Positions 298-59,198 of a stretch of 64,000 bases of DNA are shown piece after piece (position 1 is the stretch's first letter; the number at the start of each line of letters is the position of its first letter). Below the pieces are notes generated by a model. It searched no databases. It was not told the origin of the DNA and saw only the letters and a list, made by a program, of their open reading frames with translations. The DNA is from a virus, in the IMG/VR virus record IMGVR_UViG_3300035701_000016, positions 1 to 64,000 of that record. One strand, written 5' to 3'. The position numbers and the translations under genes were made by a program.

Positions 298-759
298 ATG
301 TCCACACAAGCTCGGTGTTTAGTTTGTAAAAAGCCACTCACAAGTGGCGATATCGGAGGCACCTGCTCTGCTCACCAGGGCAAGATCCGCCTCTTCGCCA
401 ATACGGCGACCATTGTGCCTGAAGGGTTCCTCAAGATGTCCGTTGTTTGCCGTGCCTACGAGAAGGCTGGTTTCACCACCCGCCAGATCGTCAAAGCCTG
501 CGGCGGCGACGCCTGCACGGAGCAACCGTTCGGCGGAGAAGATCCCAAAGGGCTGTTCTACGTGACCTACGTTGGCAACCGGAAATACTTGGCTCCCGCC
601 ATTCTCACCACCGGCATGGAGCAGTTCAAGAAAGCAACTGCAGCTCCGGCCGAAGCTCCCAAGGCTTTGGTTTCCGGCAAAGACAACGGCAAGGAAGTCA
701 ACGCAATTGCCGTCGCCCTCCAGACCAAGGTTATCAAGGCTCCGGTCTCCGTCAAGTAG
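298..759 (+). CDS. early protein with N-terminal Zn-ribbon-like motif, paralogue of the gene at 5812
   Basis: 153 residues. The start is fixed by AAAGGAGG eight bases upstream. Residues 8-26 hold C-x2-C and C-x2-H pairs spaced like a small zinc ribbon. Residues about 40-105 (VPEGFLKMSVVCRAYEKAG to YVGNRKYLAP) align by eye with the protein at 5812, so the two share a domain of about 65 residues that I cannot name. The C-terminal third is Ala/Lys/Val-rich. Codon use is GC-richer than its neighbours, as in the capsid gene, which suggests high expression. It is transcribed from the promoter at 194. DNA or RNA binding is possible but unproven. Confidence 0.75.
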   Translation: MSTQARCLVCKKPLTSGDIGGTCSAHQGKIRLFANTATIVPEGFLKMSVVCRAYEKAGFTTRQIVKACGGDACTEQPFGGEDPKGLFYVTYVGNRKYLAPAILTTGMEQFKKATAAPAEAPKALVSGKDNGKEVNAIAVALQTKVIKAPVSVK

Positions 760-830: not shown

Positions 831-1031
831 ATGCCTTTGGATCCCAAAGTTTTAGCAGAGTTTGAAAACTCTTGCGACGAAGCAGATAACGATCTGCAAC
901 TCAAGTACGAAAAAATGACTCCTGAGCAACGACAAGGAGCCGACACCTTCCTCGCCTGGTACAAGATGTGGTTTGGGAAATGCACCTACACTCACATCGG
1001 CAAGCATCTCAAGGAGTTTAGGTTTCATTAA
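831..1031 (+). CDS. small early hypothetical protein
   Basis: 66 residues. The ATG at 831 is chosen because AAGGAGG lies directly upstream; an in-frame TTG at 813 lies before that ribosome site. The protein is acidic in its first half (ENSCDEADNDLQ) and aromatic/basic at the end. There is no recognisable family. It lies between two hairpins in the early region. Confidence 0.65.
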   Translation: MPLDPKVLAEFENSCDEADNDLQLKYEKMTPEQRQGADTFLAWYKMWFGKCTYTHIGKHLKEFRFH

Positions 1032-1085
1032 TTTGCAAGAAATCGGCGGACGCAGGGTGTCCTCCGCACCCTGAATCCGGATTTG

Positions 1086-1127
1086 GAGCCTACCGTCTTC
1101 CCCGCTGGCGGTAGGCTCTTCTAGTTT
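1086..1127 (+). terminator. stem-loop terminator-like element
   Basis: GAGCCTACCG (1086-1095) pairs perfectly with CGGTAGGCTC (1109-1118), followed by TTCTAGTTT. The 10-bp GC-rich stem with trailing T residues fits a modest intrinsic terminator after the gene at 831. Confidence 0.6.
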
Positions 1128-1230
1128 CCCTTTGCTGCGAGTCCCCGTCCTGCCACGAATATCCACTGGCAAGGATGCGAATTCCCAGGAGTGGGAAACA
1201 CCACTCACAATACCACAAAAGGAGGTGTTT

Positions 1231-1506: not shown

Positions 1507-1521
1507 CATGGTATCAAATAC

Positions 1522-1550
1522 TTGTCACAAAGGCTCATTTGTGCTACACT
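1522..1550 (+). promoter_or_regulatory. sigma70-like promoter, second of the family
   Basis: TTGTCA (1522-1527), exactly 17 bases, then TACACT (1545-1550) with an extended TGC before it. The spacer ends in TCATTTGTGC. The leader motif GAAACGATTA lies at 1574-1583, matching that downstream of the promoters at 194 and 4513. It drives the membrane peptide at 1602 and probably the ATPase gene at 1791. Confidence 0.8.
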
Positions 1551-1601
1551 ATAACTAGGTAGAACTATATCTGGAAACGATTACAAAGAAAGGAGGTTGC
1601 A

Positions 1602-1790: not shown

Positions 1791-3311
1791 ATGGAAAACC
1801 GAAAGGCAGAGGTTACGGTAGATCCGTCACTGTTCAGTATGGTTGCAAGAACCATGTACAGCTCAGATCCTACCATAATTGTTCCAAGAGAACTTCTGCA
1901 AAATTCTGTGGATGCTTGCAAGAGAGCGGGCGTCATACCAGAGATATCCATGATCATAGAAACTCACTGGTCTTCTACAGAAGGTGAGAGTTGGACATCC
2001 ATTGTTTGTGAAGACAATGGTTGTGGCATGGATCAGGATGAGCTGGTTGACAAATTCTTGAAGCTCGGTGCGTCTTCAAAACGTGGAGATAGCCAGTCTA
2101 CCGGAAAGTTCGGGATTGCTAAAGCGGCAATCATGTCCGGTAAGGATTGGTCTGTTGAAACTAACGAAATAGCCGTAAGTTTTGAAGATGTGCGAGAAGG
2201 CAATCTTGTAAGAGATCTTCCGGAACCCAGAGTAGGAACCAGAGTTTATGTGATGCTAGATAGATATTGCTACAGCAAACAGACAATTGTTCGTCTGATT
2301 GAATCCTCAGAAGTAGATATCAAACTTATCCTCACGGAACGCTCCGATACCTGCTACAATATTGAACACTGTGGGCTTCTGGTCAATCCTCAGAATGAAG
2401 TAGTTCTTGTAGAAGACAAGTTGTGGAAAGGTACATCCATAGAAAAGCTTCCGTCAAACGAAGCAGATGGATATACTTTTGTTCGCTTGAATGGATTGAC
2501 CCAGTTTGAATTAAAAGGCCACTGCTCGGAAAGAGAAACCAATCTTCTCATAGATATGTTTCCTTCTACCGCAGATCCTGGAAATGACGAGTATCCATTC
2601 ACAATGTCCAGAGAAAATCTTCGTGGATCTAGCAAAGACAAGATCGACTCCTGGGTTGACGAGTGCAACAGAAATCCGTACACTACCGATTCCTTGCGAG
2701 AGGATCTTACCAACCAGGAAAAGCAGAATTTCATTCCAGGATATTCTCTGAGGGGCAAACGATCCAGACTTCATGGTGGAACTGAAGAGCAGGATAATGA
2801 TCAAGATAACATTAGAGATTCGAAAATAGTAGATGCTCTAAGAAAGATCAAGAATTATCCCTACGGTACAGATGCCATGAAGTTTATTGACGAAAATGCC
2901 ATCTCTCCTATAATTCGTCTTGACAGATATACGGTAACAGATGAAACCTTCCCTCGTGATTCTAAGATCATGCAGGCATGGGCTATGATGCTAACGTATG
3001 TAGTTGACAATGAAATAAAGTTCGGAGTTGGTTTGATCGGTGCATCTCTAACGACATCTCAGTTAGACACATCTTCCGGAATGTATTTCTTCTCAATCAA
3101 TCCTGGCTTTGTCTGCTTTGAGAAAACTCCGTTCGGTAGAGCTTTGGCTATGTGGGGAATGGCTTCTCATGAAGCTTCTCATCTGCATATTCAAAACCAT
3201 AACGAAAGTTTCACGATGGCAGAGTTGATGGTTCAGCATGAATCTGCGGATGATATCTATCCAATAGTAGCTAAGGTTGCGAGAATTCTATCCGGACCTG
3301 AGTTCTTCTAG
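1791..3311 (+). CDS. GHKL (HSP90-like) ATPase with C-terminal HExxH motif, possibly rIIA-like
   Basis: 506 residues; RBS AAAGGAGG. The N-terminal Bergerat-fold ATP site is clear: N-box RELLQNSVDA (33-42), G1 EDNGCGMD (74-81) and G2 GKFGIAKAA (105-113). The middle resembles the second domain of HSP90/MutL-type ATPases. Near the C-terminus HEASH (460-464) is a HExxH zinc-protease-type motif, with further His and Glu residues downstream that could be ligands. GHKL ATPases in early phage regions include T4 rIIA-like proteins; a topoisomerase-like or chaperone role is also possible. It follows a membrane peptide in the same unit. The ATPase fold is solid; the protease activity is inference. Confidence 0.75.
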   Translation: MENRKAEVTVDPSLFSMVARTMYSSDPTIIVPRELLQNSVDACKRAGVIPEISMIIETHWSSTEGESWTSIVCEDNGCGMDQDELVDKFLKLGASSKRGDSQSTGKFGIAKAAIMSGKDWSVETNEIAVSFEDVREGNLVRDLPEPRVGTRVYVMLDRYCYSKQTIVRLIESSEVDIKLILTERSDTCYNIEHCGLLVNPQNEVVLVEDKLWKGTSIEKLPSNEADGYTFVRLNGLTQFELKGHCSERETNLLIDMFPSTADPGNDEYPFTMSRENLRGSSKDKIDSWVDECNRNPYTTDSLREDLTNQEKQNFIPGYSLRGKRSRLHGGTEEQDNDQDNIRDSKIVDALRKIKNYPYGTDAMKFIDENAISPIIRLDRYTVTDETFPRDSKIMQAWAMMLTYVVDNEIKFGVGLIGASLTTSQLDTSSGMYFFSINPGFVCFEKTPFGRALAMWGMASHEASHLHIQNHNESFTMAELMVQHESADDIYPIVAKVARILSGPEFF

Positions 3312-3825: not shown

Positions 3826-3909
3826 ATATTCGGCCGGCGGAGTAGACGCAACGAGATTTTTACATCTCCTTTTTCGTAAGGACAGGGCAGGGCTGTCCTC
3901 GGCCACAAT

Positions 3910-4003
3910 CCGGAATAAGCACGGAAGGGTAGCGTGCAGAAATCAGACTTCAATCTGGTTTTCTGACTTGATCAGTCATCTGGTTCAATTCCAGAATTCC
4001 GGT
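3910..4003 (+). tRNA. class II tRNA-like fold with UCA in the anticodon loop, atypical
   Basis: Acceptor CCGGAAT (3910-3916) pairs perfectly with ATTCCGG (3996-4002). D stem GCAC/GTGC (3919-3937). Long variable arm TGACT/AGTCA (3964-3978). T arm TCTGG-TTCAATT-CCAGA (3979-3995). The anticodon loop CTTCAA has only six bases, closed by an unusually long stem (AAATCAGA with TCTGGTTT). The loop carries UCA, the anticodon of tRNA-Sec and of opal suppressors, but one base is missing against the normal seven. It may be a decayed or specialised tRNA, or the tRNA-like domain of a longer RNA. No CCA is encoded. Confidence 0.5.
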
Positions 4004-4199
4004 CTCGGTAGAACTGAAGACACGTGGAAATCGTAAGGTGTAACAGAGGTAGAAAAGCGGTATCCAATCCTGCTGAGTACATCGGCGACGGTAGGGATAT
4101 AAGAACCCTCAACGTGAGCGATCCACGATAAAGGACACCAGAAGGTTCTACCGGACTTGATGCGGAAGTCTCTGACTCCAAGGAGCGGAGTATGGTGCG

Positions 4200-4219
4200 G
4201 TCTCTGACGAGAGACTTTT
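4200..4219 (+). terminator. intrinsic terminator
   Basis: GTCTCT-GACG-AGAGAC followed by TTTT: a perfect 6-bp stem, a tetraloop and a T-run. It ends the structured noncoding region and precedes the gene at 4273 by about 50 bases. Confidence 0.7.
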
Positions 4220-4272
4220 ACTTGATGGTGTAATTTGCACACCGCATCAATTATATAAGAGGAAAAAAAATT

Positions 4273-4494
4273 ATGTCCAAAAAGAAATCAAATTTGCGAA
4301 GAAAAGATCCACCATGTCTGGGATGTCTACATATGTCAGAATTAGTATGTGATATTTTAGGTATAGTGGATGAAGATTCACTGAAGATATGCAATAGAGC
4401 AGGTTACAAAGAAATTCGTAGTCTAAATAGTAGGACTGGACACTATCATGAGGGTGCTTACTGGACATCAAAAGATAGAGGATATGGACGTTAA
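4273..4494 (+). CDS. small basic Cys-containing protein
   Basis: 73 residues. A weak upstream purine stretch (AAGAGGAAAAAA) serves as ribosome site. The N-terminus is very basic (SKKKSNLRRKD), then CLGCLHMSELVC gives C-x2-C with another Cys, compatible with a small zinc-bound fold. It lies between the terminator at 4200 and the promoter at 4513. Family unknown. Confidence 0.55.
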   Translation: MSKKKSNLRRKDPPCLGCLHMSELVCDILGIVDEDSLKICNRAGYKEIRSLNSRTGHYHEGAYWTSKDRGYGR

Positions 4495-4512
4495 ATCAAT
4501 TTATGTCGGGTA

Positions 4513-4541
4513 TTGTTCCGTCGGTTCATTTGTGCTATTAT
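4513..4541 (+). promoter_or_regulatory. sigma70-like promoter, third of the family
   Basis: TTGTTC (4513-4518), 17 bases, TATTAT (4536-4541) with extended TGC; the spacer contains TTCATTTGTGC. The leader motif GAAACGACTA (4564-4573) and AAAGGAGG precede the gene at 4591. Confidence 0.8.
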
Positions 4542-4590
4542 AAGTGTAGGCGCATAATGCCACGAAACGACTATACCAAAGGAGGTTACT

Positions 4591-5710: not shown

Positions 5711-5739
5711 TTGCATTAGTCGTTCATTTGCTGTATAAT
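5711..5739 (+). promoter_or_regulatory. sigma70 promoter, fourth of the family
   Basis: TTGCAT (5711-5716), 17 bases, consensus TATAAT (5734-5739). The spacer keeps CGTTCATTTGCTG, like the other three. A GGGG...CCCC stem follows in the leader (about 5752-5775). Confidence 0.85.
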
Positions 5740-5811
5740 GTATATGTAACTGGGGAGCGACACATTCTAACCCCGACAAAAATCTTGGTTCAAAACGAAA
5801 GGAGTTTCAAA

Positions 5812-6330
5812 ATGGGTGACAATCCTGTTGTAACTGCTCCGGCTGTTGAGCAGAAAGTCGTAAAGGTAAAAGTGGCGAAACCGCCAAAAGAGGCCAAGCC
5901 GCCTCGCCTCGGTAAAGGTTGGACCGAGGAAAAATGGAAAGCACGTCTGGCCGAACTTACAGTCCCTGCAATTCCCGAGGGCTGGCTCAACATGGCCGAT
6001 GTCTGCAAAAAATTCAACGATGCTGGAGTTAAGATCTCCCGTGTGGTTTCGGCCAGCGGTGGTGATCGGTGTGCTAACGAACCCTGGGACGCTGTATTCC
6101 AGGTCAAGTACGTGGGTGGACGTAAGTATCAGTCGCCCGACGTCCTGGTGAAGGGTATGGCTCTTCTGAACGACCCCACATTCCATCCGGTCGTGAGAAT
6201 TGGTCGCAAGAAAGCCACCAACCCCGACGGTACGACCAAAGAACCTGCTCCTAAGGGAGTTAAGGTGAAGGTTGAAATGGACACTAATAAGTCCAAAGTT
6301 TGGGTTGCTCCGACCAGCGATAAGAAATAA
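5812..6330 (+). CDS. early protein sharing a domain with the gene at 298
   Basis: 172 residues from the ATG at 5812 (AAAGGAG upstream); the frame stays open further 5' but those starts lie in the promoter leader. The N-terminal 45 residues are Lys/Pro/Val-rich. Residues about 57-125 (IPEGWLNMADVCKKFNDAG to YVGGRKYQSPDVL) match the domain of the protein at 298. The tail is Lys-rich and repetitive. The basic flanks suggest binding to nucleic acid, by inference. Codon use is GC-rich, as in other probably abundant proteins here. It has its own promoter and downstream hairpin. Confidence 0.75.
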   Translation: MGDNPVVTAPAVEQKVVKVKVAKPPKEAKPPRLGKGWTEEKWKARLAELTVPAIPEGWLNMADVCKKFNDAGVKISRVVSASGGDRCANEPWDAVFQVKYVGGRKYQSPDVLVKGMALLNDPTFHPVVRIGRKKATNPDGTTKEPAPKGVKVKVEMDTNKSKVWVAPTSDKK

Positions 6331-6416: not shown

Positions 6417-6701
6417 ATGATGGATAAAAAGACATCCAAGCATGATCTAATGGCAACCTACAATCTCTTAAAGGAAGAGGCCAAAACTAACTCCCACATT
6501 GAAGAAGGTAGGCTGAATAGGGCTTTGGGCATAGCCATGAGAAAAGAGTCGTATGAAAAATACTACACAACTTTTACAGGTTGCACATGTCCTGATCAAG
6601 CCAACAGATCTCAATTTATCTGCAAGCATCGCCTATCCTTCATGTTGGAGCATGGTGATGATATTAGCCTCATGCTATTTGAGGGAACTCCAATTTCTTA
6701 G
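6417..6701 (+). CDS. SWIM-type zinc finger protein
   Basis: 94 residues; GAGGAG upstream. After a helical N-terminus, residues 57-74 contain CTCPDQANRSQFICKH, a C-x-C-xn-C-x-H pattern typical of SWIM zinc fingers, which bind DNA or proteins. The preceding YEKYYTTFTG and following hydrophobic helix fit that fold. Its partner and role in the phage are unknown. It is the first of three closely spaced genes ending at the terminator at 7273. Confidence 0.65.
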   Translation: MMDKKTSKHDLMATYNLLKEEAKTNSHIEEGRLNRALGIAMRKESYEKYYTTFTGCTCPDQANRSQFICKHRLSFMLEHGDDISLMLFEGTPIS

Positions 6702-19350: not shown

Positions 19351-19507
19351 CAGGATCCTCTGCAATCCAGAAAAGAAAAGATGTTGGCATTTTCTCGAAA
19401 TACTCCCCGAGAGATATTATCTGCCCCTCCATCCCACAATAGGGGCATCGGTCATCGGTAGGAATAGTAACAAAGATGGAGAAACAGAAGGTGCAGATTA
19501 CCATCAT
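19325..19507 (-). CDS. small zinc-ribbon protein
   Basis: 60 residues with C-x2-C (CTFC) and C-x2-C (CPYC) pairs about 16 residues apart, a zinc ribbon. It overlaps the polymerase stop at its start and the primase start at its end, so it is tightly coupled to both. It could be a replication accessory factor; otherwise unknown. Confidence 0.6.
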   Translation of the reverse strand: MMVICTFCFSIFVTIPTDDRCPYCGMEGQIISLGEYFEKMPTSFLFWIAEDPDDNQHTEG

Positions 19508-20142
19508 TCCTCCGAGTCTTCGTCGTCTATATCCTCAAATTCTGCATCTATGATATCATCTTTTTCTTCTGGCTCTTTCAGCCCTGCCTGTTCATCATGA
19601 ATGAATGCTTGGAGAGGAATCTCTTTATCCTCCAGCAATGACTCTTTTGGAATCTTAAACATTTCTCCGTAGGAAGGTCCAACCTTGGCATCAGTAGCGA
19701 ACGGTATACCCACCAGATCAGGAACCTGCATAATGGTAGATATATTCTTCGCATTGTAGATTATCTTATCCCAAGGAATTTCGGTAATAGTTTCGTCGTG
19801 TACAAGACTGACAAGAGATGATCCTGGACTGTTCCCTATAATCCAATCAGTAACTCGTATAGCCGCAATTGACAGAAGGTCTGCACAACCTCCCTGAATG
19901 AGAGCGTTACAACCCTTGTAGCAATCTATAGGATTATCCTCTCTCCATATACGACCACTCCAGTATTTGACATATCCATCCATCTTGCAAGAATTTATGA
20001 CCTCTGACATCCAGGGCTTTATTCTAGGAAACTGCGCCCAATATTGATCAGTTACCCTTGAAGCCTGCATTCTGTTCATATTCAATTTGTACATTAAACT
20101 ACCGATTGTCATTCCATATATTAGCATGTTGTTCACATCTTT
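19504..20142 (-). CDS. DNA polymerase family A, exon 2 (palm and fingers end)
   Basis: The second exon begins with AAA-GAT-GTG (KDV) at 20142 and codes for 212 residues. It starts in the middle of polymerase motif B and continues NNMLIYGMTIGSL; ALIQGGCADLLSIA and motif C LVSLVHDETI supply the second catalytic Asp. The C-terminus is very acidic (DAEFEDIDDEDSEE), an uncommon extension that could bind a partner. Read alone from the GTG at 20136 it would lack the conserved Lys of motif B; joining to exon 1 at 20894 restores it. The full product is about 674 residues. Confidence 0.88.
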   Translation of the reverse strand, partial: KDVNNMLIYGMTIGSLMYKLNMNRMQASRVTDQYWAQFPRIKPWMSEVINSCKMDGYVKYWSGRIWREDNPIDCYKGCNALIQGGCADLLSIAAIRVTDWIIGNSPGSSLVSLVHDETITEIPWDKIIYNAKNISTIMQVPDLVGIPFATDAKVGPSYGEMFKIPKESLLEDKEIPLQAFIHDEQAGLKEPEEKDDIIDAEFEDIDDEDSEE

Positions 20143-20893
20143 CGATGTGCATGGACTATACCTTCAATTTGGTAAATCTTCCACTAGAGTCTACGCAACT
20201 GTGATTAAGTTGATGACAACTTTTGCACAAGAGAGTAAGATTGGAGACGTCGTTATTTGCATGATCTCCATCCTCATGATGAACACACCATAAGTTAGTC
20301 ATCTCAGGATCTGCAATTATTTCAGTCAAATCCTTTCCACAATATTCGCAGTTGAACTTTTCCATGGAAGACAACTTTATTTCGCGGAACTTTGTTACTC
20401 CGCCTTTCCAGTTGTTGTTGAGTTCTCCTGACTGATATCTACCAGTCATTCCTGTATAGGAAGAATCCGTAATATATCGTGGAAGACTACAAGTTTTACA
20501 GATAACTTGCCAATATCTTACTGGTTTGAATTCATTTCCGCATCTTGAGCAAATAGCTGACTCGGGAGCTTTCTGATGGACTACTCTGCAGTTAGGACAA
20601 TTTTTCACAGTTTGATAAGAAGGTACGAACATCTTGCCACATTTTCTGCATGATATTTCAGGGAATTTTCCATCAGAATCTAGTTTCATAACTTACCTCA
20701 TGCTCGCTTGGTTATACCGATTGGTATCCCAGACCGTAACCGTTCTGGTTACGCTGTGAGTCTCTGAACCATTTATTCTCATTCCTGAGAATTCTGGCTG
20801 CTGATTGCCATGCGACTTGTCGTTTAGGTTTCCAGCAATTGAGCGAGTTTTATTTTGGCCTGACTTTACAGGTTGACCAAAGCTTATCGTTTT
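20143..20893 (-). mobile_element. group I intron in the DNA polymerase gene
   Basis: 751 bases. Conserved elements in order on the - strand: P-like CAATTGCTGGAAACC (about 20827-20841), Q-like AATCAGCAGCC (20796-20806), R-like GGTTCAGAGACTCAC (20756-20770) and S-like GGTATAGTCCATGC (about 20149-20162); GACT and AGTC pair as P7. A P9-like stem CACATC-GAAA-GATGTG spans the 3' junction. The 5' site follows TGGTCT with P1 CTAAA/TTTGG and a U-G pair; the 3' end is G before AAAGAT. CTTT of the guide can pair with AAAG of exon 2 (P10). The endonuclease gene lies between R and S, in P8. Confidence 0.88.
20156..20689 (-). CDS. intron-encoded HNH homing endonuclease
   Basis: 177 residues; GAGGTAAG precedes the ATG. 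Two N-terminal zinc ribbons (CRKCGK with CPNC, and CSRCGN with CKTC) lead to an HNH core, CEYCGKDL then CVHHEDGDHANNDVSNLTLL and CKSCHQLNH. This architecture suits a homing enzyme that cuts intron-less polymerase alleles. Its stop codon lies in the intron S element. The HNH domain differs from the freestanding HNH_3 proteins of this phage, so the intron arrived independently. Confidence 0.88.
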   Translation of the reverse strand: MKLDSDGKFPEISCRKCGKMFVPSYQTVKNCPNCRVVHQKAPESAICSRCGNEFKPVRYWQVICKTCSLPRYITDSSYTGMTGRYQSGELNNNWKGGVTKFREIKLSSMEKFNCEYCGKDLTEIIADPEMTNLWCVHHEDGDHANNDVSNLTLLCKSCHQLNHSCVDSSGRFTKLKV

Positions 20894-22279
20894 AGACCAC
20901 TCTCTGTGAACTTGATTCATGTCATAACCACAATCACCCCAGACCTTCAATGCAATTTCCAGATGGACATCTTTACCTGCCAACAAAGCATCCAACATGA
21001 AGGGATCTCTGGATAGAACTCCAAACATTCTCATTTCCATCTGCTTGTAATCTATGCTTAGGAATAGCATACCCTTTCTTGGGATGATAGCCTTTCTCAT
21101 GTTATACTCATCGGTTCTTTTCACCGAGCCGGTATATACTGATTGAGTAAACCTACCGCGAACATTAGAGGCTACATTCTGCAGATTTGGTTTGGAGGAA
21201 CTTAGTCTACCGGTTCTTGTACCGGTGATATTGAAGCTGGTATGCAATACTTCATCGTCATCTATCTGATCTAACCATTTGAGATAATTACGTCTCAACT
21301 TATCCGCTTCTCTTAGTGCAGATATCAATTCACCAAGGGGATGATGGATTTTTTCGGTGAGAATAAATGTAGCTGTGCAAGTTGACTTATACTTGCCAGC
21401 ATCAGCAAATCTTGATCTATCCACACCATCTGCATCAGCAAATGGATTCTTGGGTTTGGGAATTCCTAGACCTGCATAGATTGCGTTACTAAGTTGCTGA
21501 GGACTACGCCAGTTGAACTCGTTACCGCACGAATCCCATAGGGTTTCCTCCATGGTTTGAATATGTTCATGCAATCTGTGCTCAGCCCAATCTGTAAAAT
21601 CTACGTCGAGACTAACTCCATGTTCCTCTGCATCGTACAGAGTTTTTATGTAGTTCATATCCTTCCAGAATAAATCTTCCAAACCTATTTTGCATAAGGT
21701 GGGAAAAAGTTTTTCGGCAAGTTGATAGGTGACCATACAGTCATTGGCGCAGTACGCACTTACTAGATGAAGAGGCCAGTCCCATATTTTGGTTCTTGCA
21801 GGTCCTTGATCAACAAAAGATCTCTTGGATGACGATCCCAGAAATCTTGTTTCAGCATCTTTCAGATTCTTCTTATATCTACTGTCTAACAGATGGATCA
21901 TAACGGTAGTATCCATTATAGTCCAGCCACCCGCACGAGGATCCATCTTCATGAAGTGAAGATCGAATTTGGAATTGTGCATGAGTATGGTGGTATCAGA
22001 TGATAGACTGTTTACTGCATTGATTACATCTATTCTGTCTTTGTCATCAAGAGTGGGAATATATCCTATCTTACCGTTGGATTTGCAGAAGAATCCAACT
22101 CCTATGATGTGATTTTGCCACGGATTGAGTCCCGTGGTTTCCGTATCCAGTGCAACCATTCTACCCTCACAGGACATCAAATCCTGGATGGTAGCAATAT
22201 AATTATGATCTACGCTTAGAACAGGATAATCGTCATCCTGTATTCGAGCCAGCTGAGTTATCGGGACAATTTCGTCCAT
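20894..22279 (-). CDS. DNA polymerase family A, exon 1 (exonuclease and N-terminal polymerase)
   Basis: 462 codons from the ATG at 22279, with GGAGG upstream. The proofreading domain has ExoI ALDTETTG (Asp45, Glu47), ExoII HNSKFDLHFM and ExoIII YCANDCMVTYQL. The polymerase domain starts about residue 220: TGTRTGRLSSSKPNLQN, motif A LSIDYKQMEMR with the first catalytic Asp, and HREWS, the opening of motif B. The exon ends after TGG-TCT; without splicing, translation runs 67 codons into the intron and stops at 20693. It would be the replicative polymerase. Confidence 0.88.
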
Positions 22280-22721
22280 CTGTAGTTTCCTCCACATGAG
22301 TTATTATGACATCCACCTGAACTAATTTTGTTTCATGAAGTTCTATCTCACGACCACAATTTTCACAGGTGAATTGATGAAGTTTTCCTCCGCATATTAT
22401 ATGCTCGGAATCGCAATACCTACATTTCAAAACAATCATTATTTCGTCATCCTTTCTTAATCTGACATTATTCTTCAGCAGATTGTAGCTCATTTGCAAC
22501 ATTTTGACGGTCCATCCTAACTCATAATTTTCACGAGTATAGTCAGACAGTGCTTCTCTAACATTACCTATGGCGGATTCCAATTCTTTTATTTCCGTTT
22601 CTTTTCTATCAACCATATATATCAGATCTTGATAGGATTTTATAGCAGACTCAGGAATTTCTCTTCCGTCTGCCATCAATGCACAAGTATCGTGTATTGC
22701 TTCCTTCAGGTTTTCTTTCAT
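22233..22721 (-). CDS. coiled-coil protein with zinc ribbon
   Basis: 162 residues. The first 95 are helical with heptads (YMVDRKETEIKELESAIGNV). A zinc ribbon CRYC...CENC follows (about 99-121). Its stop overlaps the polymerase start and its start overlaps the ThyX stop, so it belongs to the replication operon. Role unknown; DNA binding is plausible. Confidence 0.6.
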   Translation of the reverse strand: MKENLKEAIHDTCALMADGREIPESAIKSYQDLIYMVDRKETEIKELESAIGNVREALSDYTRENYELGWTVKMLQMSYNLLKNNVRLRKDDEIMIVLKCRYCDSEHIICGGKLHQFTCENCGREIELHETKLVQVDVIITHVEETTDGRNCPDNSAGSNTG

Positions 22722-54554: not shown

Positions 54555-55192
54555 AGTTTATCCGTTATGTAGATGGCATTCACTCCATCATTTTGAATCA
54601 TATCGTACAAATGAGATTTAGTCCAATTTGTAATCCAATCAAAATTGAATGCAGATTCAATGATCATCATCTTTGGTCTCCAGATATCTGCATTGAATCC
54701 CGAAAGAACAGAAGGTTCACCACCCTCAACATCTATAACGATTAGATCCAGATTGGCTGGAACTTTATGCTGACAAAGTATGGTATCCAATTTCATACCA
54801 TAAGCCTCTATAAATTTTTCTGGAGAATATTTCCAACCCCATCCTCTGGCAAGTTCATTGGCAGCTATACTTTCATTCAGAGTGCAAGCATCATAGAAAT
54901 CTGCGTCACTAAGCCAGAGTTTCACCATTCCTTCGTGATCGGTAGCGGCACATTCAAGAACGATAACTTTATTATTCTTGTGCATTTCTTTGCAATCTTC
55001 CGCCAACTGATGTATGGGCTCAATATAGATACCGTTCCAACCAGCCTCAGCCAATCCCCAAGTATTAGACCAGTTGAAACCATTATGAGCTCCGATCTCC
55101 ACGAAATATCCATCAACCTTATCATTGAAATATTTCGTGTAGAGTTCAAAAAGATTCGTTATCTGACAATCTTTGGCAGATTTATAGCTCAT
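54551..55192 (-). CDS. FkbM-type methyltransferase
   Basis: 213 residues. VEIGAHNGFNWSNTW (motif I), GIYIEPIHQLAEDC and LIVIDVEGGEPSVLSG, the D-x-E-G-x-E signature. Related to but clearly different from the next downstream gene, so an old duplication or separate acquisition. Overlaps both neighbours by ATGA. Confidence 0.82.
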   Translation of the reverse strand: MSYKSAKDCQITNLFELYTKYFNDKVDGYFVEIGAHNGFNWSNTWGLAEAGWNGIYIEPIHQLAEDCKEMHKNNKVIVLECAATDHEGMVKLWLSDADFYDACTLNESIAANELARGWGWKYSPEKFIEAYGMKLDTILCQHKVPANLDLIVIDVEGGEPSVLSGFNADIWRPKMMIIESAFNFDWITNWTKSHLYDMIQNDGVNAIYITDKL

Positions 55193-56231: not shown

Positions 56232-59198
56232 CTACTCCCATAAATTTGCCGAGATTAGTAATACTTCTTCATCATCATTTCTTCTCTTCTTCTTCTCCCA
56301 CCAGAATGGTTCCGCATGTCCAGGAGTTACTGCTACGATAGGAGCAGAAGGTGAAGGAGATGCGCTCATGGAAGAAGATATGGACGGTGATGCACTGACA
56401 CTAGCAGAGATGGATGAACTTATCGATGGAGATGCACTTACCGAAGCACTCTTAGAAGAAGATATGGATGGAGAGGCAGAAATTGAAGCACTAATGGAAG
56501 CACTAACAGAAGCACTCTTAGAGGCACTAATTGATACACTTACAGAAGCACTAATAGAAGCACTCAGAGAAGCACTGACAGAAGCACTTATGCTAGGTGA
56601 GGCAGATATTGAGGCAGACATGCTAGCTGATTTGGAAGCACTTATCGATGCACTTACAGAAACAGAAATGCTAGCAGAAATACTAGAAGAAATACTTTCA
56701 GAAATACTAGGTGAAGCACTAACAGATGCAGAAATAGAAGGACTAGCTGAAATTGAAGAAGATAAACTAGCTGAAACAGAGGCTGAAATAGATGGACTAG
56801 CAGATATACTCGCAGATATACTTGCACTTATTGATACTGAAACTGAAGCTGACTCTGATGCTGATACACTAGCACTAATAGATGCACTTTCACTGGTGGA
56901 TACAGAAGCAGAAACCGATGCGGAAATAGAAGCACTAATTGAGGGTGATGCAGAAATTGAAGCCGATTCACTAGACGATACACTGGCTGAGACACTAGCA
57001 CCAATACTAGGTGAAGAACTAACACTAGAAGAAATACTAGGAGAAGCAGATACACTAGCAGAAATAGAGGCACTTATACTCGCAGATACCGAAGCACTAA
57101 TACTTGGTGAAGCCGAGATAGATGCTGAAACAGAAGCACTTACAGAAGCTGAAATACTAAGACTCGCACTAACTGATGAAGATACACTGGCACTAACACT
57201 AGCAGACTTAGATGATGATACAGAAGAGGATATTGAGGGAGAAGCACTAAGTGAAGCACTTAGTGATGCTGATACGGAAGCTGATATACTAAGACTAGCT
57301 GAAACAGAAGAAGAAATAGAAGCGCTTACTGAAGCACTTATACTCAGACTTGCAGAGATAGATGTACTGACCGAAGCGGATATACTAGCACTTATACTGG
57401 GAGAAGCGGATATACTAGCACTAAGAGAAGCACTAACAGAAGAGGATATAGAAGGAGATGATGATACTGATGAACTAACAGAGGAACTCACACTAGCAGA
57501 AATAGAGGGTGAGGCTGATACGGAAGCACTAACACTAGCACTTGTGGAAGCACTTATTGATGGAGAAGCTGAAACTGATCCAGAAACAGACGATGAAATA
57601 CTAGCTGATAAAGATGCAGATACAGATGCACTGATTGAAGGAGATGCAGATACTGATGCACTAATTGATGGACTTGCACTGATACTTGCACTGATGCTAG
57701 GACTAGCTGAAATACTTGCACTCTCAGAAGCACTTTCGGAAGCTGAGATAGAAGGAGATGCACTGATACTAGCAGAGACGGATGCAGATATGGAAGCAGA
57801 TATACTAGCACTTTTCGAAGCTGATATAGAAGCCGAAATTGAAGCACTTTCTGATGCACTGATTGATGGGGAAGCCGAAATAGATGCGCTCTCACTTGCT
57901 GATACTGAAGCGGATATACTGGGACTAGCACTTATTGATGCGCTTTCACTTGCAGATATAGAAGAACTTATACTAGGACTTGCTGACACTGAAGCTGAGA
58001 TGGAAGCACTTACTGAGGCGCTTATACTTGGAGATGCTGAGATACTGGCGCTTTCAGAAGCAGAAATAGAAGCACTAATTGAAAGTGAAGCAGAAATACT
58101 GGCCGAGACTGATGCACTTACGCTGGACGAGATACTTGGGCTGGCACTGATACTTGCAGAAATAGATGCACTAATACTTGCACTTATAGATAGACTAGCA
58201 CTAACACTAGCAGATACTGACGCTGATATTGAAGCACTTATACTAGCCGAAATACTCGGACTTGCCGATACACTAGCACTCACTGAAGCACTAACTGACG
58301 CCGAGATGGAAGGACTTGCACTTACTGACGCCGATTTCGAAGAAGAAACTGAGGAAGATATACTAGGAGAAGCAGAAATTGAAGAGGATACCGAAGAACT
58401 TATTGAAGGTGATGAAGATACAGATGATGAAACTGAAGCACTAATACTAGGAGATGCACTTACGGATTTACTTTCACTTGCTGATACTGAAGATGATGCA
58501 CTTCCCACCACTCCCTTGAATGACTTCTTCATCATGTGGGGGAAGAATATCCTAGGATGGCTGGCAATCGGAACAGTCCCCTGCTCAACCATCTTAGCCC
58601 CGTTCATCAGATCGGGTTCATCCCCACTACTATCCCCACGAATTAGGGGATAGTAGGCGACCAGACTTTCGGGTTTGACAAATAGCGGAGAGTAACCTAC
58701 TGCTAGTTGCTTAATATCCGCCAAGGTTAAAGCCACATTCCAGAAACCGACTTCGGCCAAAATCGCTTCTGCCGCCACTTTCCAATGAGAAGAGGTCGAA
58801 TACAACATAGTACCAAGTGTAGTTCTGCTTACAGTTGTGGCCGGAACTCGACTGGTAGTTTCATCCCCACCGCCTACTCCATTTGTATAACCAGTTCGTA
58901 AAGTAGCAGAGCTAAATACTGCGGCTGCATGATTCCACGCATTAACATTTGTAGCAGGCCCATAAGACGAACTGCTCGCACCTGCCGCCCAAGTTGTCGC
59001 TCCTACTGTTCCCGTTGTTGTTATAAGTCTAAGGCCAAACCCATCAGGGGCAGCATTTGTCGAAGTCAGATATACCAAGGACTGTTCTTGTGTGAATCCT
59101 GATGGATATACCCAACACGCCATAGTCAGCGGCGTGGCTGTAATTAAGCCAGTCGCATTAAGAAAATAATTCGAGGTACTATGAACACCTCGTGCCAT
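56232..59198 (-). CDS. LamG-like domain protein with very long Ser-rich repeat
   Basis: 988 residues. Residues 1-190 form a concanavalin/LamG-like domain ([46 protein letters not shown]). Residues about 235-955 are an alternating-serine repeat ([15 protein letters not shown] and relatives) in which nearly every second residue is Ser. The last 30 residues are Pro/Trp then basic ([14 protein letters not shown]) and acidic. Probably an extended, flexible virion spike with a sugar-binding head; Ser side chains may carry glycans. A long opposite-strand frame here is a by-product of the repeat. Confidence 0.75.

What the first reader, a model, noticed from the sequence alone, without database searches (positions are those of the whole stretch)
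3826..4270. Ornate noncoding RNA candidate containing a UCA tRNA-like fold
Seen: about 445 bases with no credible gene, many stems, a class II tRNA-like cloverleaf with long variable arm, and a terminator. The anticodon loop has six bases with UCA, the Sec/opal-suppressor anticodon, on an overlong stem. Inference: either a specialised tRNA able to read UGA, or a large phage RNA (GOLLD/ROOL-like) with a tRNA-like domain. TGA is used as a normal stop by several genes here, which argues against full recoding.
Basis: partly seen in the sequence, partly recalled or inferred. Interest (0 to 1): 0.75.

Follow-up and report, generated by a model that had tools for sequence, protein, structure and literature searches.

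The report
Phage RNA containing a tRNA mimic
A dsDNA phage carries, between two small genes, about 420 bases that fold into a row of RNA domains, one of them a genuine tRNA-shaped fold whose anticodon arm looks unfit for reading codons; related phages carry different, equally abnormal tRNA-shaped RNAs, which suggests tRNA mimics of unknown purpose.

Summary
Window 3829-4250 (+) is an intergenic, non-coding stretch that folds into four side-by-side domains. The second (3910-4002) is a perfect class II cloverleaf with a canonical T-arm. A cloverleaf descriptor gave no hit in 19.2 Mb of shuffled sequence, and its other hits in 4.2 Mb of real viral DNA are tRNAs or tRNA-like folds. Each domain folds better than shuffles (z about -2.5 to -4.2).

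The anticodon arm (9-bp stem, 6-nt loop) departs from decoding tRNAs. tRNA-Sec is the best covariance-model match but far below cutoff (17.9 vs 47 bits) and its hallmarks fail. TGA is a normal stop, and no interior UGA occurs in 53 genes with homologues. GOLLD, ROOL and every other Rfam family fail to match.

No sequence homologue was found, but relatives of the same phage clade carry other tRNA-like folds with abnormal anticodon arms. One sits in a closely parallel multi-domain RNA ahead of a small gene.

Best reading: an anticodon-disabled tRNA mimic inside a structured RNA co-transcribed with an operon, probably an RNase P substrate and/or a ligand of host tRNA-binding proteins. Expression and function are untested; covariation could not be tested.

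The parts
3829..3906 (+). 5' multi-branched domain: GGCCG/CGGCC (3832-3836/3900-3904) enclosing three hairpins
   Evidence: fold and pair probabilities 0.64-0.99; z -2.5
3910..4002 (+). tRNA-like domain: class II cloverleaf, 7-bp acceptor, 5-bp D arm, 9-bp anticodon stem with 6-nt loop CUUCAA, 5-bp variable arm, 5-bp T arm with loop UUCAAUU; U at discriminator position 4003, no CCA
   Evidence: descriptor hit, none in 19.2 Mb shuffled; z -4.2; tRNA-Sec model 17.9 bits
4002..4156 (+). third domain closed by CGGTAGAACT/GGTTCTACCG (4006-4015/4144-4153), with inner helices 4023-4034/4118-4127 and 4060-4087
   Evidence: pair probability 0.98 for the closing helix; z -2.5
4157..4250 (+). fourth domain closed by TTGATGCGG/CCGCATCAA, containing hairpins 4170-4190 and 4199-4216
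   Evidence: pair probability 0.96; z -4.1
4257..4494 (+). RBS-like AAGAGGA and small ORF (4273-4494, 73 aa) directly after the RNA; no Pfam or PHROG match
1512..1561 (+). nearest upstream match to the phage's own promoter motif (TTG...TGTGCTACACT); would drive the operon that contains the RNA
   Evidence: PWM scan
4503..4552 (+). next phage promoter (TTTGTGCTATTATAA), downstream of the RNA; bounds the operon

Best explanation
A non-coding RNA of about 420 nt, transcribed within the phage's (+)-strand operon (promoter near 1540, next promoter near 4531), made of four domains of which the second is an anticodon-disabled tRNA mimic. The 12-bp acceptor/T helix and the D/T-loop elbow are intact, so host tRNA-binding factors that read only that half (RNase P first, possibly CCA-adding enzyme, EF-Tu or T-arm modification enzymes) should bind it. 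The 9-bp/6-nt anticodon arm should keep it from decoding. Most likely it is a processing and anchoring module: RNase P cuts near 3909/3910, separating the upstream mRNA from a stable structured RNA, and the mimic may also titrate a host tRNA factor. Shown: the fold, its statistical reality, its non-canonical anticodon arm, and other abnormal tRNA-like RNAs in related phages. Inferred: transcription, RNase P cleavage, binding partner and function.
For: Cloverleaf with no chance hits (wider descriptor, none in 12.4 Mb shuffled). All domains fold better than shuffles. All stems intact, which argues against decay. 108 of 117 distinct tRNA folds found by descriptor in the fetched DNA have the canonical anticodon arm; this one does not. 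Phages of the same clade have their own tRNA-like folds with abnormal anticodon arms: G007 L177:1224-1290 (RF00005 48.5 bits, 4 bp/5 nt), G005 54841-54898 (7 bp/3 nt as scored, no variable loop, 4-bp T stem), and more weakly G002 L009:16041-16134 (20.5 bits, 5-nt loop). The G007 RNA has the same layout: structured 5' part, tRNA-like fold, 10-bp-helix domain, 9-bp-helix domain, then RBS and ATG within about 30 nt. No own promoter or terminator.
Against: No sequence homologue anywhere searched, so no covariation test was possible. The locus is absent at the syntenic place in the closest relatives. The flanking domains of window and G007 have no convincing sequence similarity. Expression is unknown. 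The parallel layout rests on two cases and was noticed after the fact.
Confidence: 0.5

Rival explanations
1. A cis-acting 5' leader of the small gene at 4273: the structured RNA, with its tRNA-like domain as a sensor for a tRNA-binding protein, controls translation of the 73-aa ORF.
For: The last helix ends 22 nt before the ATG with an RBS-like AAGAGGA between; in G007 a similar last helix precedes the next RBS-ATG by about 30 nt; in G005 the tRNA-like fold also sits just before an RBS-ATG. Established precedent from general knowledge: the E. coli thrS operator mimics tRNA-Thr arms.
Against: The downstream genes in window, G007 and G005 are not recognisably the same; the RBS is outside the helices, with no evident switch; 420 nt is large for a leader.
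Confidence: 0.2
2. A real but unusual tRNA (tRNA-Sec-like or opal suppressor) that decodes UGA.
For: Loop CUUCAA matches the tRNA-Sec loop except one missing A; class II arm; tRNA-Sec is the best Rfam match (17.9 bits); 12-bp 7/5 acceptor branches exist in some bacterial tRNA-Sec (PMC5330540).
Against: Score far below cutoff 47; U73 not G73; D arm 5 bp/9 nt not 6/4; anticodon stem 9 bp and loop 6 nt; TGA is a normal stop; no gene with homologues has an interior UGA.
Confidence: 0.05
3. A decaying tRNA pseudogene inside phage intergenic DNA, with fortuitous flanking structure.
For: Phage tRNA genes are often gained and lost; the clade has tRNA-Arg and tRNA-Met genes elsewhere; allo-tRNA pseudogenes exist (PMC7609411).
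Against: No stem is broken: 31 of 31 pairs hold; the anticodon stem is longer, not eroded; the flanks are also significantly structured; several relatives show abnormal tRNA-like folds.
Confidence: 0.15
4. A decoy against host tRNA-targeting defences (anticodon nucleases): it binds the nuclease or a sensor but cannot be cut at a normal anticodon loop.
For: Anticodon arms are abnormal in each tRNA-like fold of the clade while acceptor, D and T arms are kept. Phage tRNA countermeasures to tRNA-cutting defences are established in general.
Against: No direct evidence; many anticodon nucleases need the loop for binding; the host is unknown.
Confidence: 0.1

Closest known systems
tRNA-Other of Bacillus cereus (PMC3399842): pseudo-tRNA inside a larger regulatory RNA
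   Same: A tRNA-like element that does not act in translation, within a longer structured transcript
   Different: Chromosomal island rather than a phage operon; no sequence comparison was made here
tRNA-Sec (RF01852)
   Same: Class II arm, CUUCAA loop, long D stem, non-U8 linker
   Different: 7/5 not 8/5 acceptor branch; U73; D arm 5/9; anticodon arm 9 bp/6 nt; 17.9 bits against cutoff 47
allo-tRNAs and irregular tRNA polycistrons (reviewed in PMC7609411)
   Same: 12-bp acceptor branch and non-canonical cloverleaves, some not usable in translation in E. coli
   Different: 7/5 branch here rather than 8/4 or 9/3; embedded in a multi-domain RNA; phage
GOLLD and ROOL RNAs (RF02032, RF03087; PMC12286853)
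   Same: Large structured phage RNAs; GOLLD linkers can contain tRNAs
   Different: No covariance-model match; about half the length of GOLLD; no own promoter or terminator
tRNA-like L177:1224-1290 in related phage G007
   Same: tRNA fold with abnormal anticodon arm within a row of helical domains before a small gene; same phage clade
   Different: Class I, short variable loop, no sequence similarity beyond tRNA elements, different neighbour genes

Membership tests
tRNA (RF00005), decoding | 7-bp acceptor, 5-bp T stem, TTCRANN T loop, G18G19 | tested here: met
   sequence
tRNA (RF00005), decoding | 5-bp anticodon stem with 7-nt loop and U33 | tested here: not met
   9-bp stem, 6-nt loop
tRNA (RF00005), decoding | covariance model at gathering score (29 bits) | tested here: not met
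tRNA-Sec (RF01852) | covariance model at gathering score (47 bits) | tested here: not met
   17.9 bits
tRNA-Sec (RF01852) | G73, 8/5 branch, 6-bp/4-nt D arm (PMC5330540) | tested here: not met
   U at 4003, 7/5 branch, 5-bp/9-nt D arm
tRNA-Sec (RF01852) | UGA-interrupted (selenoprotein) gene in the genome | tested here: not met
   no interior UGA in 53 genes with homologues, 242 alignments; the host was not examined
GOLLD (RF02032) | match to the conserved 3' region model | tested here: not met
   no match at E 10; Rfam scan of the region
ROOL (RF03087) | match to the 574-position model | tested here: not met
   no match at E 10 (where no control genome rang either)
tRNA-like element within a larger RNA | tRNA fold inside a longer structured non-coding stretch | tested here: met
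tRNA-like element within a larger RNA | tRNA part present in a longer transcript | not testable with these tools
   needs RNA-seq or RACE
RNase P substrate | cleavage at the 5' end of the acceptor stem | not testable with these tools
   12-bp acceptor/T helix is present; assay needed

The most novel reading that the evidence does not exclude
A clade of uncultured phages carries a new class of multi-domain RNAs built around anticodon-disabled tRNA mimics that change quickly in sequence while keeping the tRNA elbow and acceptor, used to capture a host tRNA-handling factor during infection.
Probability: 0.22. Interest if true: 0.8.

Novelty: new variant of a known kind. Interest (0 to 1): 0.5.

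Why it matters
If expressed, it would be a phage structured RNA, outside Rfam, that mimics tRNA with the anticodon end altered. That points to a host tRNA-binding factor as its target and gives a simple test, RNase P cleavage. The recurrence of different abnormal tRNA-like folds in related phages suggests that standard tRNA finders overlook such elements: ARAGORN called neither this one nor the G007 one.

Tried and rejected
Sequence homologues: blastn in phages and plasmids, exact and gapped patterns in viral and genome contigs, DNA and covariance search of relatives: none. One weak model match, L102 (27 bits), is another class II tRNA-like fold in a phage tRNA array. Known families: Rfam at gathering and at E 10, GOLLD, ROOL, tRNA-Sec; RF01998, tried by mistake for GOLLD, is a group II intron piece. 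UGA recoding: rejected. A protein in the region: no ORF matches relatives. An own promoter: best local score ranks 688th. Homology of the 860-nt RNA of G003: alignment no better than shuffles. A genome-contig search for the phage primase, to find a host, was empty.

Full report
What is there. The window is the first 64 kb of a 75.1-kb virus record, a tailed dsDNA phage of an undescribed clade: large terminase at best 45% identical to Streptomyces and Thermobifida phages, primase without any match among named phages. The finding lies in a (+)-strand operon after a RIIA-like ATPase gene (1791-3311) and two small ORFs, and before a 73-aa ORF (4273-4494).

The observation. Bases 3829-4250 fold into four consecutive domains. 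Overall z is -2.8; separately the domains give -2.5, -4.2, -2.5 and -4.1, against -0.2 to -2.1 for neighbouring coding sequence. The second domain, 3910-4002, is a complete class II tRNA cloverleaf. Because the eye finds cloverleaves easily, I tested it with a descriptor (T loop GTTCRANNC, 5-bp T stem, 7-bp acceptor, D stem with GG loop, anticodon stem): two hits in the window (this and tRNA-Arg), none in 19.2 Mb of shuffled window, 80 in 4.2 Mb of real viral DNA, which by inspection are tRNAs or tRNA-like folds. A looser descriptor on relatives gave no hit in 12.4 Mb shuffled. So the tRNA fold is real, although ARAGORN and the Rfam tRNA model do not report it.

What it is not. A decoding tRNA has a 5-bp anticodon stem and 7-nt loop (PMC7609411); here it is 9 bp and 6 nt. 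108 of 117 distinct tRNA folds found by descriptor in the fetched DNA are canonical in this arm. Against tRNA-Sec: 17.9 bits with cutoff 47, U73, 7/5 branch, 5-bp/9-nt D arm (features from PMC5330540). UGA ends 28 of 86 ORFs, and among 53 genes with homologues in relatives (242 alignments) no interior UGA occurs, so the phage shows no need for a UGA reader. GOLLD and ROOL models find nothing at E 10.

Relatives. An alignment of the primase brought about a dozen relatives. None has the RNA by DNA or by covariance model, and the region facing it in G003 is filled with small genes. But G007 (and its 99.99% copy G006) has a non-coding stretch of about 460 nt, L177:960-1420, with z -2.9 for 1000-1420. 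It contains a tRNA-like fold of 48.5 bits whose anticodon arm is 4 bp with a 5-nt loop. It is followed by a 10-bp-helix domain, a 9-bp-helix domain and an RBS-ATG, as in the window. G005 has a 58-nt fold with a 3-nt loop as scored (it could also be read as a 5-bp/7-nt arm with CAU but no U33), no variable loop and a 4-bp T stem, just before an RBS-ATG. G002 has a weak one (20.5 bits, 5-nt loop) directly before tRNA-Arg. The sequences are unrelated outside tRNA elements, so common descent is not shown; the recurrence within one clade is the point.

Transcription. The clade has a promoter motif TTG-N17-TGTGSTATWAT. Matches at 1540 and 4531 (+) bracket the RNA; none lies just upstream, and the terminator-like hairpin is at chance level. 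The RNA is therefore probably part of an operon transcript and would need processing to become separate. An intact 12-bp acceptor/T helix is what RNase P recognises (established knowledge), so a cut near 3909/3910 is the simplest prediction.

Mechanism and rivals. I favour a tRNA mimic with a disabled anticodon arm acting as processing and anchoring module and possibly as bait for a host tRNA factor (0.5). Rivals: cis-acting leader (0.2), pseudogene (0.15), defence decoy (0.1), UGA-reading tRNA (0.05).

Closest precedent. tRNA-Other of B. cereus, a pseudo-tRNA proposed to be a structural element in a larger regulatory RNA (PMC3399842), works most like it; no membership is claimed.

Noticed in passing
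window 19504-22297 (-): The family A DNA polymerase gene is split by an insertion carrying an HNH-like ORF (20156-20689); relatives G002, G003 and G004 have it uninterrupted. Probably an intron; no Rfam intron match.
   Followed up: partly
L007:18690-19560 (-), phage G003: About 860 nt non-coding, very structured (z -4.9), with a helix of more than 20 bp and a strong terminator at the 3' end; no Rfam match; lies between homologues of window genes 5728-6330 and 6417-6701, the same neighbourhood as the G007 tRNA-like RNA.
   Followed up: partly
L176:5550-5760 (+), phage G007: Promoter motif followed by about 180 nt of structured non-coding sequence ending in a terminator-like hairpin (GGTCGG...CCGACC, T run): a candidate small RNA gene.
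   Followed up: partly
window 212, 1540, 4531 (+); 9853, 31551 (-): Conserved phage promoter motif TTG-N17-TGTGSTATWAT, shared by several relatives.
   Followed up: partly
window 1030-1210 (+): Intergenic stretch with a 13-bp hairpin (GAGCCTACCGTC/GGCGGTAGGCTC) and others; the gap 760-1131 has z -7.0.
   Followed up: no
window 298-759, 5728-6330; L014:5990-6403: Three paralogues of an undescribed protein family recur in the phage and its relatives.
   Followed up: no
window 56232-59198 (-): 988-aa protein built of serine-rich SAS/SxS repeats among tail and glycosyltransferase/methyltransferase-like genes.
   Followed up: no
L014:9320-9500 (record 73.3-73.5 kb): Long imperfect inverted repeat (ACCAGCGTTATATGCC...GGCATATAACGCTGGT) in non-coding DNA.
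   Followed up: no
L145:545-638, L115:3834-3933: tRNA-Sec genes called by ARAGORN in viral contigs, one in a tRNA row with Ala and Cys.
   Followed up: no
L102:10631-10720 (-): Another class II tRNA-like fold with a very short anticodon loop (UUCAA or UCA) in a tRNA array of a 465-kb viral contig; the only other sequence matching the covariance model (27 bits).
   Followed up: partly
window 3964-3978; L177:1184-1198: Both RNAs have a hairpin loop holding the palindrome GAUC (the variable-arm loop in the window), a possible symmetric kissing loop; may be chance.
   Followed up: no
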